From Collimonas humicola (GTDB lineage: Bacteria; Pseudomonadota; Gammaproteobacteria; Burkholderiales; Burkholderiaceae_D), in NCBI RefSeq assembly GCF_018304945.1, contig NZ_JAGQEE010000001.1:186001-250000 (forward strand): a stretch of DNA of 64,000 nt, in the 5' to 3' direction. How positions within the stretch are numbered: the stretch's first letter is position 1; each line of letters opens with the position of its first letter. Under the pieces are notes generated by a model that saw nothing but the letters and a program-made list of their open reading frames with translations, was not told the DNA's origin and did not search any database. Made by a program: the position numbers and the translations under genes. This document shows, in pieces, positions 49,366 to 57,535 of this stretch.

Positions 49366-49432
49366 GCGCAGCCGGTATCAATACCACTGCGGGACTGCGC
49401 CAGCACCGCCGCGGCGTCGTGCCTCCAAATTC

Positions 49433-49446
49433 AAAACCACTTGCAA
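49433..49446 (+). promoter_or_regulatory. Half-site of the chitin-locus motif upstream of the cupin gene
   Basis: AAAACCACTTGCAA contains the core ACCACTTG (49436-49443) that also occurs in the promoters of both chitin-binding lipoprotein genes. It lies about 105 bases before the ATG at 49551. ATACCACT at 49381-49388 is a nearby relative. Only a half of the bipartite element is seen here. Confidence 0.4.
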
Positions 49447-49550: not shown

Positions 49551-50591
49551 ATGGCGCAAGCGAAGCAGAATGCAAGCATCATCATCAACGACGACTGGCG
49601 CCGCTGGATAGGCGAAAACCTGGCGCTCGACGCCGCTCCGCAAGACCTGTTCAACGTCCTGGTCGCGCAAGGCGTGGCCGCGGGCGAGGCGCAGCGCGAA
49701 GTGCAGGCCGCGCTGGCCAGCCCCTACCTGCTGGGCGCGCGCCAGGCCGGCCAGCGCCTCAAGAACCGCCTGAAGAAGCATGACTGGGTGCTCGACATCT
49801 ACCGCACCCTGAACCGGCAGACTGCTGGCAGCAGCGTGATTGAACGCCGTCACCGGCTGTCGCGCGAGGAGTTCTATCGCCAGTATTATCTGTTGAACAA
49901 GCCGGTGATCATCACTGGCATGCTGGATGACTGGCCGGCGCTGAGGAAATGGAATTTCGATTTCCTGCGTGCGCACTTCGGCGCGCGCGAAGTCGAAGTG
50001 CAGATGGGGCGTTCGCAGGACGCCAACTATGAAATCAATTCCAGCCAGCACAAGCGCAAGATGCCGCTGGCAAGCTATCTGGACATGATCGAGGGCGCGC
50101 AGGAGAGCAACGATTTCTACATGACGGCGAACAACTCGTCGTCCAATCGCCAGGCGCTGGCGGAGTTGTGGCAGGACATCGGCCGCCTGCCGGAATACCT
50201 GAACCCGGATTCGGTGGACGACGGTTTTCTCTGGCTGGGGCCGAAAGGCACGCGTACGCCGTTCCACCACGACCTGACCAATAACTTCATGGCGCAGGTG
50301 GCCGGCCGCAAGCGCGTCAGGCTGATTCCCGCCTGCGAACTGGCGTATGTCTATAACCACCATCATTGCTATTCGCCGGTCGACGGCGCCGCCATCGACT
50401 ACGAGCGTTTTCCGCTGATGCGCAATGCGCAGCTGCTCGAATGCGAACTGGCCGCAGGCGAACTGCTGTTCCTGCCGGTCGGCTGCTGGCACTACGTGGA
50501 AGGGCTGGAGGCAAGCATCACCGTGTCGCTGATCAACTTCCAGCCGGACAATAATTTCGGCGCCTTCTATTCGACCTACGACGAACTGTAG
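49551..50591 (+). CDS. Cupin-like / JmjC-domain protein (PF13621)
   Basis: A 346-residue probable Fe(II)/2-oxoglutarate-dependent oxygenase. The C-terminal two-thirds forms the cupin_8 fold: KPVIITGMLDDWPALRKWNF, the metal-binding motif TPFHHDLTNNFMAQVAGRKR, LIPACELAYVYNHHHCYSPV and the distal His in LFLPVGCWHYVEGL. The HxD and distal His complete a facial triad, so catalysis is plausible. The N-terminal 90 residues are a separate helical part (EAQREVQAALASPYLLGARQ). Such proteins hydroxylate proteins or small molecules; the substrate is unknown. It shares a motif half-site with the chitin genes downstream. Confidence 0.88.
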   Translation: MAQAKQNASIIINDDWRRWIGENLALDAAPQDLFNVLVAQGVAAGEAQREVQAALASPYLLGARQAGQRLKNRLKKHDWVLDIYRTLNRQTAGSSVIERRHRLSREEFYRQYYLLNKPVIITGMLDDWPALRKWNFDFLRAHFGAREVEVQMGRSQDANYEINSSQHKRKMPLASYLDMIEGAQESNDFYMTANNSSSNRQALAELWQDIGRLPEYLNPDSVDDGFLWLGPKGTRTPFHHDLTNNFMAQVAGRKRVRLIPACELAYVYNHHHCYSPVDGAAIDYERFPLMRNAQLLECELAAGELLFLPVGCWHYVEGLEASITVSLINFQPDNNFGAFYSTYDEL

Positions 50592-51132
50592 CCAGGCGCC
50601 GGCTGTTGCCGTAGCTCTGCCTGATATCGAAAATCCGCGCCGATCCTGATGCCGTGCACAGCCTGATCCGGGCTGTTTGCCGGCGTGATTTTTCAGGTTG
50701 GCGCCGCAAAACCGTAAAGATGGCGTTCGGATCTCTAAGACCACATGCATACATCTGCGGAAGTGGTATCGCACCGATTGTCACACTTTTTTCCGCCGAT
50801 TTTCCGGCAGCGGCGGATTGTGCTTTCTTCATATGAGAAAAACAGGGATCTTTAGAAGTTTTTTATTGCCGCAAGGCATTGTATTGCAAATGAAAATTTC
50901 TTTTCGATTATGGAAAACCATAGAATTTTCCGATTCGAAATTCCGAGTTGTTTGCAAGTGGTATGGCATATGCCGTCAAATTTTTAAACCACTTGACGTT
51001 GATTTTTCAGGCCTCCATTCTCAGTCCAGCTGCCAGTTAAACATATAACGGATTCAGCTTAGGGAGTGCGCAGGCGCCGGTCGGATCGACCTGCTTCTCG
51101 CACATTGTCATTTGATAGAGGAGGAGTGGCGC
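50592..51132. other. Intergenic region upstream of the chitinase gene
   Basis: These 541 bases are AT-rich relative to neighbours and hold the chitinase promoter element (50951-51021). An additional AAGTGGTATC lies at 50761-50770. Short open frames here have no coding features that I trust. Confidence 0.5.
50951..51021 (+). promoter_or_regulatory. Chitinase promoter: bipartite element with overlapping -35
   Basis: TTTGCAAGTGGTATGG (50951-50966), 19 bases, then AAACCACTTGACG (50986-50998). The two halves contain the inverted pair CAAGTGGT (50955-50962) and ACCACTTG (50988-50995). TTGACG (50993-50998) is a good -35, followed after 17 bases by CATTCT (51016-51021). The same layout with identical spacings is found before the minus-strand gene at 57006, which argues for a common regulator. 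The regulator is not identified in this window. Confidence 0.7.
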
Positions 51133-52455
51133 ATGAGAACAACTGTATGCAATACCTTGTTGATGGGATTGATAGGCGGCCTGCTGGCAGGCTGTAGCGA
51201 CGGCGGATCGGCAGGTGCCGCGGCCGTCAGCCAAAAGCAGGTTTCTGCCACCGTGAAATCGAGCGTGCCGGTCTGCGCTCCCGCCTGGAGCGCTTCCGCC
51301 GTCTACACCGGCGGCAACCAAGCCAGCTACAGCAGCGTGAACTACACGGCCAACTGGTGGACTCAGGGGAATAATCCATCGACCAACAATGGCGGCAGCG
51401 GCAGCGGACAGCCGTGGACTTCGAACGGCGCCTGCAGTACAACGCCGACTCCTACGCCAACCCCGACTCCCACACCGACCCCGACCCCGACGCCAACTCC
51501 GACGCCAACTCCGACGCCTACTCCAACACCGACTCCGACGCCAACGCCAACGCCAGGTTTTGTGTTCAGCGCATACAAGGACGTCACCGCCGACGCCAAC
51601 TGGAACACCGGCGCCATGCAGAGCACGGCAACCGGCACCTCCTTGCCGGTCACTACCGCCATGCCGGCGCATAACAGCGTGCTGACCTGGGCCTTCGCCA
51701 CCGGCGGCTGCGGTTCCGAGACCTGGGCCGGCATCACGCCGGCGATGATTGCCACCAACGTCCAGTCCTTCGTGGCCGCAGGCAAGAAATACATCGTTTC
51801 AACCGGCGGAGCGGCAGGGTCGTTCACCTGTACCTCGGATGCCGGCTTCGACGCCTTCATCAACACGTATAACTCGGCCAACCTGATCGGCATCGATTTC
51901 GATATCGAAAACGGCCAGAGCCAGTCTGACATCAACAACCTGGTGGCGCGGGTCCAGGCGGCCCAGGTCAAGTATCCGAACCTGCGCTTCAGCTTCACCA
52001 TCGCCACGCTGGCGACCAGCCAGAGCGGTTCCTCGGTGGCGGTGGACATGGGCTCGGCTTCGCCTAATCCGCTGGGTTCGATGGGGATAGCGGTGATGCA
52101 GGCGATCCAGTCCGCAGGCCTCAAGAACTACTATGTCAACCTGATGGTGATGGATTACGGCTCGGCTACCGCGGTCAACTGCGTGATCAGCGGCGGCGTT
52201 TGCCAGATGGGGCAGTCGGCGATCCAGGCGGCGATGGATTTCCGCGGCTTCTACAATGTGCCGTACAGCCAGATCGAGCTGACGCCGATGATAGGCGCCA
52301 ACGACACCCCCGGTGAAACTTTCACCCTGGCCGATACCGATACCTTGTCGGCCTGGTCCAAGGCCAACGGCATCGCCGGCCTGCACCACTGGTCGTTCGA
52401 CCGCGACACCGGCATGAGTTACACCAACCGCTTCATCTCGGATCTCGGCCTCTGA
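51133..52455 (+). CDS. Chitin-binding GH18 chitinase lipoprotein
   Basis: A 440-residue surface lipoprotein that should cleave chitin. Lipobox LLAGC gives lipidation at Cys21. A CBM5/12-type chitin-binding module follows (about 48-101) with APAWSASAVYTGG, NYTANWWTQGN and PWTSNGAC. Then comes a linker of 19 Thr-Pro units (104-141), then a GH18 barrel with the catalytic motif LIGIDFDIENG (Asp255, Asp257, Glu259), intact. The end, GIAGLHHWSFDRDTGMSYTN, supplies the barrel's last strand. Its first 101 residues align without gaps to those of the gene at 55489-57006. The ATG at 51133 has an AGAGGAGGAG site. A strong terminator follows. Confidence 0.93.
   Translation: MRTTVCNTLLMGLIGGLLAGCSDGGSAGAAAVSQKQVSATVKSSVPVCAPAWSASAVYTGGNQASYSSVNYTANWWTQGNNPSTNNGGSGSGQPWTSNGACSTTPTPTPTPTPTPTPTPTPTPTPTPTPTPTPTPTPTPTPGFVFSAYKDVTADANWNTGAMQSTATGTSLPVTTAMPAHNSVLTWAFATGGCGSETWAGITPAMIATNVQSFVAAGKKYIVSTGGAAGSFTCTSDAGFDAFINTYNSANLIGIDFDIENGQSQSDINNLVARVQAAQVKYPNLRFSFTIATLATSQSGSSVAVDMGSASPNPLGSMGIAVMQAIQSAGLKNYYVNLMVMDYGSATAVNCVISGGVCQMGQSAIQAAMDFRGFYNVPYSQIELTPMIGANDTPGETFTLADTDTLSAWSKANGIAGLHHWSFDRDTGMSYTNRFISDLGL
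51442..51555 (+). repeat. Nineteen Thr-Pro hexanucleotide units (linker)
   Basis: A 114-base run of ACN-CCN codons encodes (TP)19 between the chitin-binding module and the GH18 domain. Third-base variation breaks perfect repetition, but the 6-base period is kept. It could change length without a frame shift. Confidence 0.95.
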
Positions 52456-52480
52456 TCCGCTGCTGCTTGCCTTGTCATCA

Positions 52481-52508
52481 AGCCGGCTCGCAAGAGCCGG
52501 CTTTTTTC
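52481..52508 (+). terminator. Rho-independent terminator of the chitinase gene
   Basis: AGCCGGCTC (52481-52489) pairs perfectly with GAGCCGGCT (52494-52502) around GCAA, followed by a T-run. It lies 26 bases after the chitinase stop and is the clearest terminator in the window. Confidence 0.92.
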
Positions 52509-52683
52509 ATGGCGCCGGCCGGGCGATCTGCAATGCCTTGCATGACAGGCATCGGGCGTATCCGATCCTTGCCAACTTTCTTGTATACATGGAGTTGGAC
52601 TTGCGACATCATATTCCTCACGCCGCATGGCGGGCGGCGTGAAACGCCGTTGTCCGCTGTATCCGATGCGCCAGGGAAAAGCC

Positions 52684-54294
<1,611 letters not shown>

Positions 54295-54371
54295 CTCCTG
54301 CCGGCGCGCCGCCTTGTTACAATCTCGCATCTGCCGCTTTGCACTACATACCGATCAATAAGGAAAGCAAA

Positions 54372-55229
54372 ATGCCTGAAGCAGTCGACCTTACCCGCAT
54401 CTGTCCGGTGATCATGACGCCTAGCCATGACGGGAAATTTTTCCGCAACTATGTGATGTCCCTATTGAATTTTACGGTGGAGGCCGCACGCTGCGGCATG
54501 CCGATGCAAGTGGTCATGCATCAAGGCGAAAGCCTGGTGACGCGGGCGCGCAACAACTGCGTCGCCGATTTTCTCGCCAATCCGCAATGGACGCACCTGT
54601 TCTGGATCGACGCCGACATCGGTTTTTCCGCCGAGGCGGCGTTCCGCTTGCTGCGTTCAGGCTACGATATCGCCGCCGGCGTCTATCCGCTCAAGCACGA
54701 AACCTGGCCTCAGGAAGGCCTGCCGCAGGGCACGACCCGGCAGCAATTCGAAGCGACCTATGCCCGTTACACCGTCAACGCCAAGGTTGCCGACGGCAGC
54801 AAGCAGGTCAACCTGGAAGTGCAGGCCGACGGTTTCATGCGCATGGAAGAAGCGCCGACCGGCTTCATGGTGATCAAGCGCAGCGTGTTCGAGCGGCTGA
54901 TCGCCAGCTACCCTGAGCTCAACTATGTGCCCGACAGCATCGGCGTTCCCGACCAGGGGCTGCACTACCGCTTTTTCGACGTCATGGTCGATCCGGAGAC
55001 GCGCCGCTATCTGTCGGAAGACTATGGTTTCTGCCGCCTATGGTCAGGGCTGGGCGAGTCCATCTATATCGACGCCAATTCCAACCTGAGCCACCAGGGC
55101 TCCAAGCTGTACACGGGCGATTTCGCCAATTCCCTGCGTACTTCCTTGCCTTACGCGATAGGCGCGCCGGAAGGCGCGCAGATGCAGCTCACCGGGCTGG
55201 AATATTTGCGTTCCAATCCCTTGTTCTGA
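54372..55229 (+). CDS. Glycosyltransferase-like protein, GT-A fold
   Basis: A 285-residue protein with a GT-A type nucleotide-sugar fold. The metal motif is HLFWIDADIGF (DAD), preceded by SLVTRARNNCVADF, and an acceptor-side acidic motif occurs in YLSEDYGFCRLW. Segments like GYDIAAGVYPLK resemble a family of uncharacterised transferases also found in phages and capsule loci. The ATG at 54372 follows AAGGAAAG; a start at 54339 would add eleven residues. No partner glycan genes adjoin it, so the acceptor is unknown. It converges with the gene ending at 55489. Confidence 0.8.
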   Translation: MPEAVDLTRICPVIMTPSHDGKFFRNYVMSLLNFTVEAARCGMPMQVVMHQGESLVTRARNNCVADFLANPQWTHLFWIDADIGFSAEAAFRLLRSGYDIAAGVYPLKHETWPQEGLPQGTTRQQFEATYARYTVNAKVADGSKQVNLEVQADGFMRMEEAPTGFMVIKRSVFERLIASYPELNYVPDSIGVPDQGLHYRFFDVMVDPETRRYLSEDYGFCRLWSGLGESIYIDANSNLSHQGSKLYTGDFANSLRTSLPYAIGAPEGAQMQLTGLEYLRSNPLF

Positions 55230-55271
55230 GCAAAATCGTAAGCCGGTTTTCGCTGCGCTTAAGCTACATAG

Positions 55272-55336
55272 CTAAGTGGGGTCAGAGTAAATTTTCTGCG
55301 CGCTTTTTGCAGAAACTGCACTCTGACCCCACTTAG
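55272..55336. repeat. Palindromic repeat 1 (GGGGTCAGAGT type)
   Basis: CTAAGTGGGGTCAGAGT (55272-55288) and its exact reverse complement (55320-55336) enclose an inner stem TTTCTGC / GCAGAAA. It follows the stop at 55229 and may end transcription. GGGGTCAGAGT palindromes recur in betaproteobacterial intergenic regions as REP-like elements. Confidence 0.85.
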
Positions 55337-55408
55337 CGGGTTACGGAGTGCATGCCTCGCCGTTGAAAAAACATGCAGCGCGCTCTGCCTTTCTCCGAAT
55401 CCGTCATG

Positions 55409-55463
55409 TGGGGTCGGAGTCAAGTTTCGCGATAAAACACCGCGAAATTTGACTCCGACCCCA
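55409..55463. repeat. Palindromic repeat 2 (GGGGTCGGAGT type)
   Basis: Arms of 23 bases at 55409-55431 and 55441-55463 pair with a single mismatch around a 9-base loop. The core TGGGGTCGGAGTC differs from repeat 1 by A to G. Positioned just after the end of the minus-strand gene at 55489, it could serve both converging genes as a terminator. Confidence 0.85.
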
Positions 55464-55488
55464 GATGACTGCCCCCAGATGACTCCGA

Positions 55489-57006
55489 TTACAGCTGCAC
55501 GCTGGTAGTAGCGCTGAACTTGGTGTTCAGGTTGGTTTCCAGGTTGCCGATGGCTTTTTCCAGGATGCTGAAGATTTGCGCCCGGTCGGCGGCGTTGCTC
55601 AAGTCCAGCGTGGCGCTGGCGGTCACGCCGACGCTGGCCAGGGCGCTGTTGAACGCGGTTTGCGCCTGCGCCGCCGAAATGTAGACCGAGGTTCCTGTGC
55701 CGTTGACATACGCTAGCGTCTGGAACACGTTCGAGAACACGGTTTCCAGCGCCGGCATGCCGAAGGCGACATGGTTGGCCGGCGTCGTGAAGGTAGTGGG
55801 GCTGGTGGTCGGGATCGGGTTGCCGTACAGCTGGTCGAGGTAGTAGCGCACCTGATACGGATATTGCTGGTAAGTGTCGGTCGCGCCCCACACCGAGCTG
55901 TAGGCGTTGACGCTGCTGACCGTCGCTGCGGTCGCCGTCGCTCCCAGTTTGCTGTAGCTGGTCATCAGGGGGCCGTAGTAACCCTGGTTGTAGGCGACAT
56001 TCAGCAAGACGTCCAGGAAATTGCCAGGCAGCTTGGTGAAGTTGGCCAGCGTATTGTCATAGTAAGGCTGCCACGGCGTCGTCCAGCCGCCGGCGCCCTT
56101 GCCGGTGAGGATCAGGGCGACGAAATCGTTGTAATGGAAATACGCGGTCAGCATCGGCCCGTAGTATTTATTGTTGAACGAGGGCGGCGTCACCTTGGTG
56201 TACTGCTGGGCCGCGGTGGCCATGGTGTAGCCGATGTTTTTCTGGATGGCGACGTAGTTGATCAGCGAATGGCCGGCCGGCGCATAGGAGCCGGAAACCA
56301 TGTCGGCGGCGTAGTTGTTGATCTGGTAGGGGCCGCCCTGGCCGGCGCCCATCACGGCTTGCTGGTCCGGCGAGGGATCGATCAGGCTGCCGCTGCTGGC
56401 GTACAGCCCGGTCTCGATGTTTTCCTGCAGCAGCTGGCCCATGATCGAGCCGTACATGTAATCCTTCTGGAACTGCATGCCTGGATAATATTGTTGCACC
56501 AGGTGGCCATACATGACGCCGGCGATGATGTTCGACATGATCAGGTCGTTGTAGTTGCCGCCATCCAGCACCAGCTGGTCCTGGGCGCTGCCGGCGCCCA
56601 GCAGCAGGTGATAGCTGATGGTGCCGGTGGTGCTGCCAGGCGTGGCGGGCGGCGGATTCACCGGAGGCGGCGTGACTGGCGGCGGGGTGGGCGTGCCGCT
56701 GCCGCATACGCCGTTGGAAGTCCATGGTTTGCCGCTGCCGCTGCCGCCGCTGTCGGTAACCGGGTCGTTGCCCTGGGTCCACCAGTTGGCGGTGTAGTTG
56801 GTGCTGTTGGCGCTGGCGCTGTTGCCGCCGACATAGACGGTGCTGGCGTTCCAGGCAGGCGCGCAGGCCGGCGCGCTGGCCTTGCCGGTGGCGGCAATCT
56901 GCTTCTGGCTGGCGCTGCCCGCATCGCTCGAGCCGCCGTCGCCGCAACCTGCCAGCATGCTGCCGATCGCGGTGCACAGCACGGTGCTGACTATTCTTGT
57001 TTTCAT
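55489..57006 (-). CDS. Chitin-binding lipoprotein with lysozyme-superfamily-like catalytic domain
   Basis: A 505-residue lipoprotein with lipobox MLAGC (Cys21) and a CBM5/12 chitin-binding module (about 48-101: APAWNASTVYVGG, NYTANWWTQGN, PWTSNGVC). A Pro-rich linker (105-123) leads to a domain of about 370 residues. There, GQLLQENIETGLYASSG offers Glu195 or Glu198 as catalytic acid, and VMGAGQGGPYQINNY recalls the substrate-binding signature of GH19/GH23/chitosanase-like enzymes. So it may cut chitin, chitosan or peptidoglycan; the exact family is unsure. Its N-terminal module and promoter match those of the GH18 gene at 51133, strongly suggesting co-regulation on chitin. Confidence 0.82.
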   Translation of the reverse strand: MKTRIVSTVLCTAIGSMLAGCGDGGSSDAGSASQKQIAATGKASAPACAPAWNASTVYVGGNSASANSTNYTANWWTQGNDPVTDSGGSGSGKPWTSNGVCGSGTPTPPPVTPPPVNPPPATPGSTTGTISYHLLLGAGSAQDQLVLDGGNYNDLIMSNIIAGVMYGHLVQQYYPGMQFQKDYMYGSIMGQLLQENIETGLYASSGSLIDPSPDQQAVMGAGQGGPYQINNYAADMVSGSYAPAGHSLINYVAIQKNIGYTMATAAQQYTKVTPPSFNNKYYGPMLTAYFHYNDFVALILTGKGAGGWTTPWQPYYDNTLANFTKLPGNFLDVLLNVAYNQGYYGPLMTSYSKLGATATAATVSSVNAYSSVWGATDTYQQYPYQVRYYLDQLYGNPIPTTSPTTFTTPANHVAFGMPALETVFSNVFQTLAYVNGTGTSVYISAAQAQTAFNSALASVGVTASATLDLSNAADRAQIFSILEKAIGNLETNLNTKFSATTSVQL

Positions 57007-57535
57007 GCATATCTCCTGTATTGAATGGGGAAGTGCGTGAAACCAGATAGTTTCCGCACGCCAACTAATCCGGGCCGAGGATGAGGGCAGCGAAATTGGG
57101 CGTCAAGTGGTTTGCACGGTTTTTTACAGCGACCATACCAGTTGCAAAGCGGTATTGACTTTCATTTGCCGCGGGTGGCGATTTAAGTCACAGATAGCAC
57201 GCCGGGCGAGGCGATGTTATTTCCCTGTGGCAATGAATTAGTTTTTGTGAAAATACCTTCTTGATAATTTTCTTGAGGGGGTGCTGTGCTGGCGGAGAAA
57301 GTGCGCGTCTGTCAGGCGATAGACAGGTGTAATACCACTTTTCCATTTTTTTGCATGTGGTCTTGGTGCTTTTGCAGAGGATTCTTGCCGGGCAGGCGAT
57401 GCCAGTCATGAAAACAATCCGCCAGGGACGGAGTGTGGCAATATGCCGGATATTTCCCTGCTGACATATTTCTCAATCGGCTCGTTGACGCGGCAGGGCT
57501 GAGTCCATCGTCTTACAGAACAGAAGGTTTCTTTC
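57007..57535. other. Divergent intergenic region between the chitin lipoprotein and PQQ-type dehydrogenase
   Basis: These 529 bases hold the minus-strand promoter element (57078-57148) and, nearer the plus-strand gene, AATACCACTT (57331-57340) and TTGCATGTGGTCTTGG (57351-57366), weaker relatives of the same motif. A common regulator could act in both directions. No small gene was seen. Confidence 0.5.
57078..57148 (-). promoter_or_regulatory. Promoter of the second chitin lipoprotein, same bipartite element
   Basis: On the minus strand TTTGCAACTGGTATGG (57148-57133), 19 bases, then AAACCACTTGACG (57113-57101), containing the -35 TTGACG. After 17 bases comes CATCCT (57083-57078). Against the chitinase promoter the left half has one mismatch in 16 and the right half none in 13, and both spacings are equal. 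The 19-base spacer sequences are unrelated, which shows the halves are selected. Confidence 0.7.

What the first reader, a model, noticed from the sequence alone, without database searches (positions are those of the whole stretch)
50951..57148. Shared bipartite promoter element in front of two chitin-binding lipoprotein genes
Upstream of the GH18 gene (50951-51021) and of the minus-strand lipoprotein gene (57078-57148) the same layout occurs: TTTGCAASTGGTATGG, exactly 19 bases, AAACCACTTGACG with TTGACG as -35, exactly 17 bases, CATYCT. The halves match 15/16 and 13/13 while the 19-base spacers are unrelated. The halves contain inverted CAAGTGGT/ACCACTTG cores, and half-sites recur before the cupin gene (49436-49443) and near the PQQ-type dehydrogenase (57331-57366). 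This suggests an activator-dependent chitin regulon whose regulator is elsewhere in the genome.
Basis: partly seen in the sequence, partly recalled or inferred. Interest (0 to 1): 0.78.

Follow-up and report, generated by a model that had tools for sequence, protein, structure and literature searches.

The report
Chitinase promoter switch in Collimonas relatives
Two chitin-binding protein genes share a multi-part DNA control switch that recurs almost only in front of chitin-degrading genes in related soil and freshwater bacteria, and its core word also marks the genes for using the chitin sugar GlcNAc, which points to the known sugar regulator NagQ.

Summary
In detail: TTTGCAASTGGTATGG-N19-AAACCACTTGACG-N17-CATYCT lies at 50951-51021 (+) and 57078-57148 (-), with no third copy in the 5.62-Mb genome at up to 3 mismatches. 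An exact-pattern scan of 84,980 genomes gave 91 stretches, 89 in Burkholderiales. Of 85 downstream proteins scanned, 78 match CBM5/12, 6 LPMO_10 and 1 a permease family. With gaps of 8-38 allowed, all 101 matches in 294 genomes have 19, 20 or 21. The half-site ATACCASTT also marks this genome's nag operon, a TonB receptor and two other GH18 genes. That operon encodes a GntR/UTRA regulator; 49 of 50 element-bearing genomes have an ortholog of 66% identity or more. It fits NagQ, which papers describe as binding TGGTATT direct repeats. Best reading: a chitin/GlcNAc regulon under NagQ with a new operator layout on secreted-chitinase promoters. 'Chitin regulon' and 'regulator elsewhere' are supported; 'activator' is not shown. 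No binding or expression was measured.

The parts
50951..50966 (+). Proximal element of the GH18 gene, left half TTTGCAAGTGGTATGG (inverted half-site ASTGGTAT)
   Evidence: conserved family-wide
50986..50998 (+). Proximal element of the GH18 gene, right half AAACCACTTGACG; last six bases are the -35 hexamer
50999..51005 (+). Place of the second repeat (family consensus ACCAMTT); degenerate here (TTGATTT, 3 of 7)
   Evidence: logo; compared by eye
51016..51021 (+). -10 element CATTCT of the GH18 gene
50737..50769 (+). Distal dyad of the GH18 gene, AAGACCACATGCA-N11-AAGTGGTAT
51124..52455 (+).
57133..57148 (-). Proximal element of the lipoprotein gene, left half TTTGCAACTGGTATGG
57101..57113 (-). 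Proximal element of the lipoprotein gene, right half AAACCACTTGACG with -35 hexamer
57094..57100 (-). Second repeat CCCAATT (6 of 7 to ACCAMTT)
   Evidence: logo; compared by eye
57078..57083 (-). -10 element CATCCT of the lipoprotein gene
57332..57364 (-). Distal dyad of the lipoprotein gene, AAGACCACATGCA-N11-AAGTGGTAT
55489..57006 (-). Lipoprotein gene with CBM5/12 (score under the curated cut-off) and a C-terminal region without a family match
49380..49444 (+). Two direct half-sites before the cupin gene: AATACCACTGC (49380-49390) and AAAACCACTTGC (49433-49444); not the full element

Best explanation
The element is the control region of a chitin/GlcNAc regulon in Collimonas and relatives (Oxalobacteraceae), read by the GntR/HutC-family regulator NagQ encoded in the nag operon. 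Shown by sequence: one half-site, ATACCASTT, occurs in two layouts. Nag-type (nag operon, TonB-receptor gene, some chitinases): ATACCASTT followed 11 bp later by a second repeat that runs into TTGACA, usually with a third. Chitinase-type (secreted CBM5/12 proteins and LPMOs, the reported element): an inverted half-site 28-30 bp upstream of one that runs into TTGAC, usually a second repeat 11 bp further, a -10 of the form CATNCT, and in most cases a distal dyad. Inferred: NagQ binds these half-sites; without chitin sugar it covers the -35 box, helped by contact with the distal dyad through a DNA loop; GlcNAc-6-phosphate made from imported chitin sugar releases it and the chitinase genes are expressed.
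For: Specificity for chitin genes. Fixed spacing with 0 reversed-pattern controls. Columns not used in the search are conserved: second repeat and CATNCT. Distal dyad in strict form in 39 of 69 non-redundant upstream regions, shuffle mean 0.005, 0 of 100 downstream controls. Half-site shared with the nag-type element in 27 of 30 loci around orthologs of the regulator and with 4 sites in this genome, each before a chitin/GlcNAc gene, 0 controls. Ortholog of 66% identity or more in 49 of 50 element-bearing genomes against 55 of 244 others. Papers give NagQ direct repeats TGGTATT and chitin genes in its regulon.
Against: No binding or expression data. The chitinase-type element is not the published direct repeat: its strong half-site is inverted. 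G237 carries two elements but no ortholog of 66% or more, only a 60% paralog; it is a single contig with an estimated completeness of 48%. G061 and G186, same genus, have the regulator but no element at up to 3 mismatches. The association is not corrected for relatedness. 30 of 69 upstream regions lack the strict distal dyad. Plain repression does not explain the conserved C positions of the -10. The phasing test for a loop is not usable.
Confidence: 0.6

Rival explanations
1. A separate, unidentified activator reads the inverted dyads of the chitinase promoters, and NagQ reads only the direct-repeat sites on the nag-type promoters; the half-sites look alike by kinship of the two proteins or by convergence.
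For: The layout differs from the published NagQ repeat. The -10 CATNCT is far from consensus in all but a few positions and conserved, as activator-dependent promoters can be. Some genera carry a second NagQ-like paralog at 58-62% identity.
Against: Same 9-letter half-site with the same C/G freedom. No paralog of that class is listed for the window's genus, which does carry the element (a listing cut at about 58% identity). No regulator gene cluster is found beside the element in more than 7 of 91 loci.
Confidence: 0.2
2. The two window promoters are alike only because the genes arose by duplication; the blocks have no regulatory role.
For: The genes are paralogous at their 5' ends.
Against: The same blocks and spacing stand before GH18, GH19 and LPMO genes in several genera while spacers and flanks differ.
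Confidence: 0.03
3. Quorum sensing through the JAI-1 motif TTGAN6/7TCAA controls these promoters, as proposed for Janthinobacterium chiA.
For: The motif lies at the element in 10 of 91 loci, all of the 21-base-gap class; PMC5080296 reports it before chiA genes (passages).
Against: Absent at the other 81 loci, among them Collimonas; 1 of 43 non-redundant sites.
Confidence: 0.05
4. A dedicated sigma factor reads TTGAC and CATNCT, and the upstream half-sites are secondary.
For: The distance from TTGAC to CATNCT is constant and two C positions of the -10 are nearly invariant (36 and 37 of 38).
Against: A and T at positions 2 and 6 of the -10 (38 of 38) fit an ordinary sigma-70-type -10 (recalled); the distal dyad is conserved far upstream.
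Confidence: 0.1

Closest known systems
NagQ (GntR/HutC) regulon of GlcNAc and chitin use in proteobacteria (PMC4494728, PMC5343134; passages seen)
   Same: Regulator of the same domain make-up in a nag operon; half-site TGGTAT; target genes for GlcNAc and chitin use; nag-type sites in this genome are direct repeats
   Different: The chitinase-type element joins an inverted half-site at a 28-30 bp distance with direct repeats and a distal dyad; in the passages seen the papers describe only direct (tandem) repeats and do not name Oxalobacteraceae
DasR / NagR (YvoA) and their dre sites
   Same: Closest solved relatives of the regulator; half-site resembles the dre half (dre consensus recalled)
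   Different: No compact palindrome in excess of control in the genome and none scored in the nag locus
JAI-1 quorum-sensing motif of Janthinobacterium (PMC5080296; abstract and passages seen)
   Same: Reported before chiA genes of related bacteria; overlaps the element in 10 of 91 loci
   Different: Different sequence; absent from the window sites and from the other 81 loci

Membership tests
NagQ regulator (protein P0001) | GntR DNA-binding domain with UTRA effector domain (HutC subfamily) | tested here: met
   PF00392 and PF07702 over cut-off
NagQ regulator (protein P0001) | Encoded with GlcNAc-use genes | tested here: met
   BadF-type kinase, NagA-like frame, SIS protein, GH3, AmpG-like permease in one run of genes (NagA and AmpG by eye)
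NagQ regulator (protein P0001) | Named by a curated family model as NagQ | tested here: inconclusive
   No NCBIfam model over its cut-off; 23 weaker GntR matches. No NagQ reference sequence was compared
NagQ regulator (protein P0001) | Releases DNA on GlcNAc-6-phosphate | not testable with these tools
   needs protein work
NagQ operator, nag-type sites | Direct (tandem) repeats of TGGTATT before nag genes | tested here: met
   AATACCASTT with further ACC repeats at 11-bp steps, 20 non-redundant examples; the second repeat is weaker (ACCTRTT)
NagQ operator, the reported chitinase-type element | Direct repeats of TGGTATT | tested here: not met
   The full half-site is inverted relative to the one at -35; only the -35 half and the ACCAMTT after it are direct. 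Filed as a variant, not as a canonical member
DasR/NagR dre site | Compact palindrome ASTGGTMTAGACCAST (recalled) | tested here: not met
   46 rows (23 places on both strands) against 76 control rows for a relaxed form in the genome; none scored in the nag locus
JAI-1 motif | TTGAN6/7TCAA at the promoter | tested here: not met
   Not at the window sites; 10 of 91 loci, 1 of 43 non-redundant sites

The most novel reading that the evidence does not exclude
One GlcNAc regulator (NagQ) uses two operator grammars in the same genome: direct repeats over the -35 box to repress catabolic genes, and a looped pair of inverted dyads on a deliberately weak CATNCT promoter to switch secreted chitinases, where it also acts as an activator. 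Chitinase output would then need both the sugar signal and the regulator itself. I found no account of this for NagQ in the searches or in the passages.
Probability: 0.27. Interest if true: 0.68.

Novelty: new variant of a known kind. Interest (0 to 1): 0.5.

Why it matters
Chitin breakdown by Collimonas, Janthinobacterium, Massilia and Duganella bears on soil nitrogen, fungus-feeding and biocontrol, and the searches showed me no paper on a chitinase-specific regulator in Collimonas. The element gives a sequence test for regulon membership with 2 hits outside Burkholderiales in 84,980 genomes, names a testable regulator, and offers a case where one HutC-type protein may read two differently arranged operators.

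Tried and rejected
Compact DasR-type palindromes as the operator: no excess over control, none scored in the nag locus. JAI-1 quorum-sensing motif: 10 of 91 loci. A PhoB/OmpR-type response regulator, which the 11-bp direct repeats suggested: dropped without a test once the NagQ direct-repeat literature was found. A regulator gene beside the chitinase genes: among clustered neighbours in the 8-kb loci the most frequent regulator-like cluster is a TetR-like one in 7 of 91 loci; a receiver-domain cluster is in 4 and others in 2 (by eye). More regulon members from the right half plus -10 alone: 60 matches against 50 controls at up to 3 mismatches, not informative beyond the two known sites. Distal dyad as a genome-wide search term: 12 matches against 13 controls at 1 mismatch; 3 exact, two of them the window sites. 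Helical phasing of the distal dyad: 25 hand-picked representatives gave p about 0.06 at 10.5 bp and 0.0008 at 11.0 bp, and a subset over 110 bp, chosen afterwards, about 8e-5 at 10.5; the period and subset were free choices, so not used. Structure of the C-terminal region of the 55489-57006 protein: mean pLDDT 39.6, not interpretable, no fold search made.

Rows dropped before counts; 6 of 51 genomes looked chance-like to me (G096, G161, G073, G277, G107, G063); the association count does not use that set but; 6 of 91 downstream genes were not scanned (L035, L079 as chance-like; L042, L047 with broken frames; L108, L109 at the end of the fetched stretch). One search collapsed 90 sites to 38 and left out L035, L079, L070, L003-L031 and sites near stretch ends. 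(motif part) and 84 left out L035, L079 and L013-L031, and searches also sites with under 300 bases upstream (the 100 downstream controls were not collapsed).

Full report
Setting. The window is contig 11, 186001-250000, of a 5.62-Mb genome. Three genomes of its genus have contigs of the same length as named Collimonas records (G175:C16 and NZ_FOLC01000001.1, 557,355 bases; G164:C42 and NZ_FOQI01000006.1, 249,365; G217:C345 and NZ_JAQGLV010000384.1, 8,863), so I take the window to be Collimonas (inference).

Observation. The two sites are as described: left blocks 15/16, right blocks 13/13, spacer 5/19 identical. The genome has no third copy at up to 3 mismatches and the reversed pattern has none. 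Both genes encode lipoproteins with CBM5/12, in the second under the curated cut-off.

Distribution. Among 294 genomes of the family, 51 had a match at up to 3 mismatches, of which I judge 6 chance-like. A scan of 84,980 genomes for ASTGGTATK-N18-22-AAACCASTTGAC gave 91 stretches (80 were listed there, all 91 titles are): 89 are Burkholderiales (Janthinobacterium, Massilia, Duganella, Rugamonas, Collimonas, Undibacterium, Pseudoduganella, Herbaspirillum and unnamed members), 2 are not (L035 Roseivirga, L079 Firmicutes; their next genes look unrelated). Raw gaps were 20 in 63, 21 in 15 and 19 in 13. Of 91 downstream genes 85 were scanned: 78 match CBM5/12, 45 GH18, 19 GH19, 6 LPMO_10 and 1 MFS_1, which looks like AmpG. 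Allowing gaps of 8-38 in the 294 genomes, 50 genomes had 101 matches, with gaps 20 (72), 21 (22), 19 (7) and no other; the reversed pattern had 0.

Proximal element. In 38 non-redundant sites columns that no search used are also conserved: ACCAMTTT beginning 11 bp after the first ACCA, and CATNCT 17 bp after the -35 hexamer (C 36, A 38, T 32, C 37, T 38 of 38). In the window the second repeat is 6 of 7 for the lipoprotein gene and 3 of 7 for the GH18 gene.

Distal dyad. In 67 non-redundant upstream regions there are 51 further ATACCAST/ASTGGTAT words, about 1.2 expected. They form a second dyad, ACCA before TGGT at 23 or 24 bp: by a loose rule in 49 of 69 upstream regions, its ACCA 65-231 bp before the proximal element. 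In strict form it is in 39 of 69, against a shuffle mean of 0.005 (maximum 1 in 200 rounds) and 0 of 100 downstream regions; other spacings have at most 1, except 28-30 with 12. In a looser clustering 28 of 48 clusters have it. Some regions without a hit carry a near form ending in CGGTATT (L052 and others, by eye). The window dyads are 50737-50769 and 57332-57364. As a stand-alone search term it is not specific in this genome (12 against 13 controls).

GlcNAc genes. Five UTRA-domain regulators were found in the genome. One lies among a BadF-type kinase, a NagA-like frame, a SIS protein, a GH3 enzyme and an AmpG-like permease, behind tonB/exbB/exbD-like genes (several names by eye). Upstream stands AATACCACTTAAAGGCCGGTTGACA. 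This nag-type element is in 27 of the 30 loci fetched for the best matches to the regulator (missing by that pattern in L183, L185, L192). The logo of 20 non-redundant examples, fetched around the regulator or from this genome, reads AATACCASTTAAATACCTRTTGACA, a further CCACT, and a TANAGT -10. This genome has 4 such sites, with 0 reversed-pattern controls: before a TonB receptor, the nag operon, a CBM5/12-GH18 gene and a GH18 gene. With the two window sites that makes six predicted promoters, all before chitin or GlcNAc genes.

Regulator. The protein (P0001) has GntR and UTRA domains; no NCBIfam model passes its cut-off. Its closest solved relatives are B. subtilis YvoA and DasR. Orthologs of 66% identity or more (my threshold) are in 104 of 294 genomes, and in 49 of the 50 with the element; 55 of the other 244 have one. 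Fisher p is 2.5e-25, without correction for relatedness. The exception, G237, is a single contig of 48% estimated completeness, with two elements and a 60% paralog. Of 15 genomes in the window's genus, 12 have the ortholog and 10 of these the element; the 3 without it lack the element.

Literature (passages only unless stated). PMC4494728 lists NagQ as a HutC-subfamily regulator with 'direct repeats TGGTATT'. PMC5343134 gives NagQ a tandem-repeat motif, places it in alpha- and betaproteobacteria and some gammaproteobacteria, and reports chitin genes in these regulons, such as Reinekea chiA and cdxA; the words Oxalobacteraceae and Janthinobacterium do not occur in its main text. PMC5080296 (abstract and passages) reports TTGAN6/7TCAA before vioA, jqsA and chiA of Janthinobacterium and Duganella. 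PMC4690342 mentions two Collimonas chitinase loci and a LuxR-type system resembling CepIR, which regulates chitinases elsewhere. PMC6141813 and PMC13055268 were seen in passages. Searches for NagQ with regulon, with chitinase, or with the repeat showed no account of this element; the library lacks most subscription papers, including the original NagQ paper.

Interpretation. Shown: a composite element specific to chitin genes, with two dyads, sharing its half-site with GlcNAc genes, in bacteria that nearly all carry a NagQ-type regulator. Inferred: that NagQ binds it, that binding over -35 represses, that the dyads are linked by a loop, that GlcNAc-6-phosphate is the signal. The conserved -10 is not explained by plain repression and leaves a positive role for NagQ or a partner open.

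Noticed in passing
window 55489-57006 (-), C-terminal about 390 residues: No Pfam match outside CBM5/12, no PDB sequence match, and among 85 downstream proteins only two relatives, both Collimonas, 87-88% identical. The predicted model was too poor to use.
   Followed up: partly
window 49551-50591 (+): Cupin_8/JmjC-type protein gene beside the GH18 gene; a relative lies near the element in 21 of 91 loci (cluster 2; families).
   Followed up: partly
L213:9071-9820 (+) and L216:8979-9740 (-): The second NagQ-like paralog (about 59-61% identity) lies near a MurQ-like and an AmpG-like gene (by eye), so it may serve another amino sugar.
   Followed up: no
L214:497-2008 (-): A tryptophan-halogenase-family gene follows a TonB-receptor-like gene that has a nag-type element upstream.
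   Followed up: no
L042 and L047: Two genes behind the element have broken reading frames.
   Followed up: no
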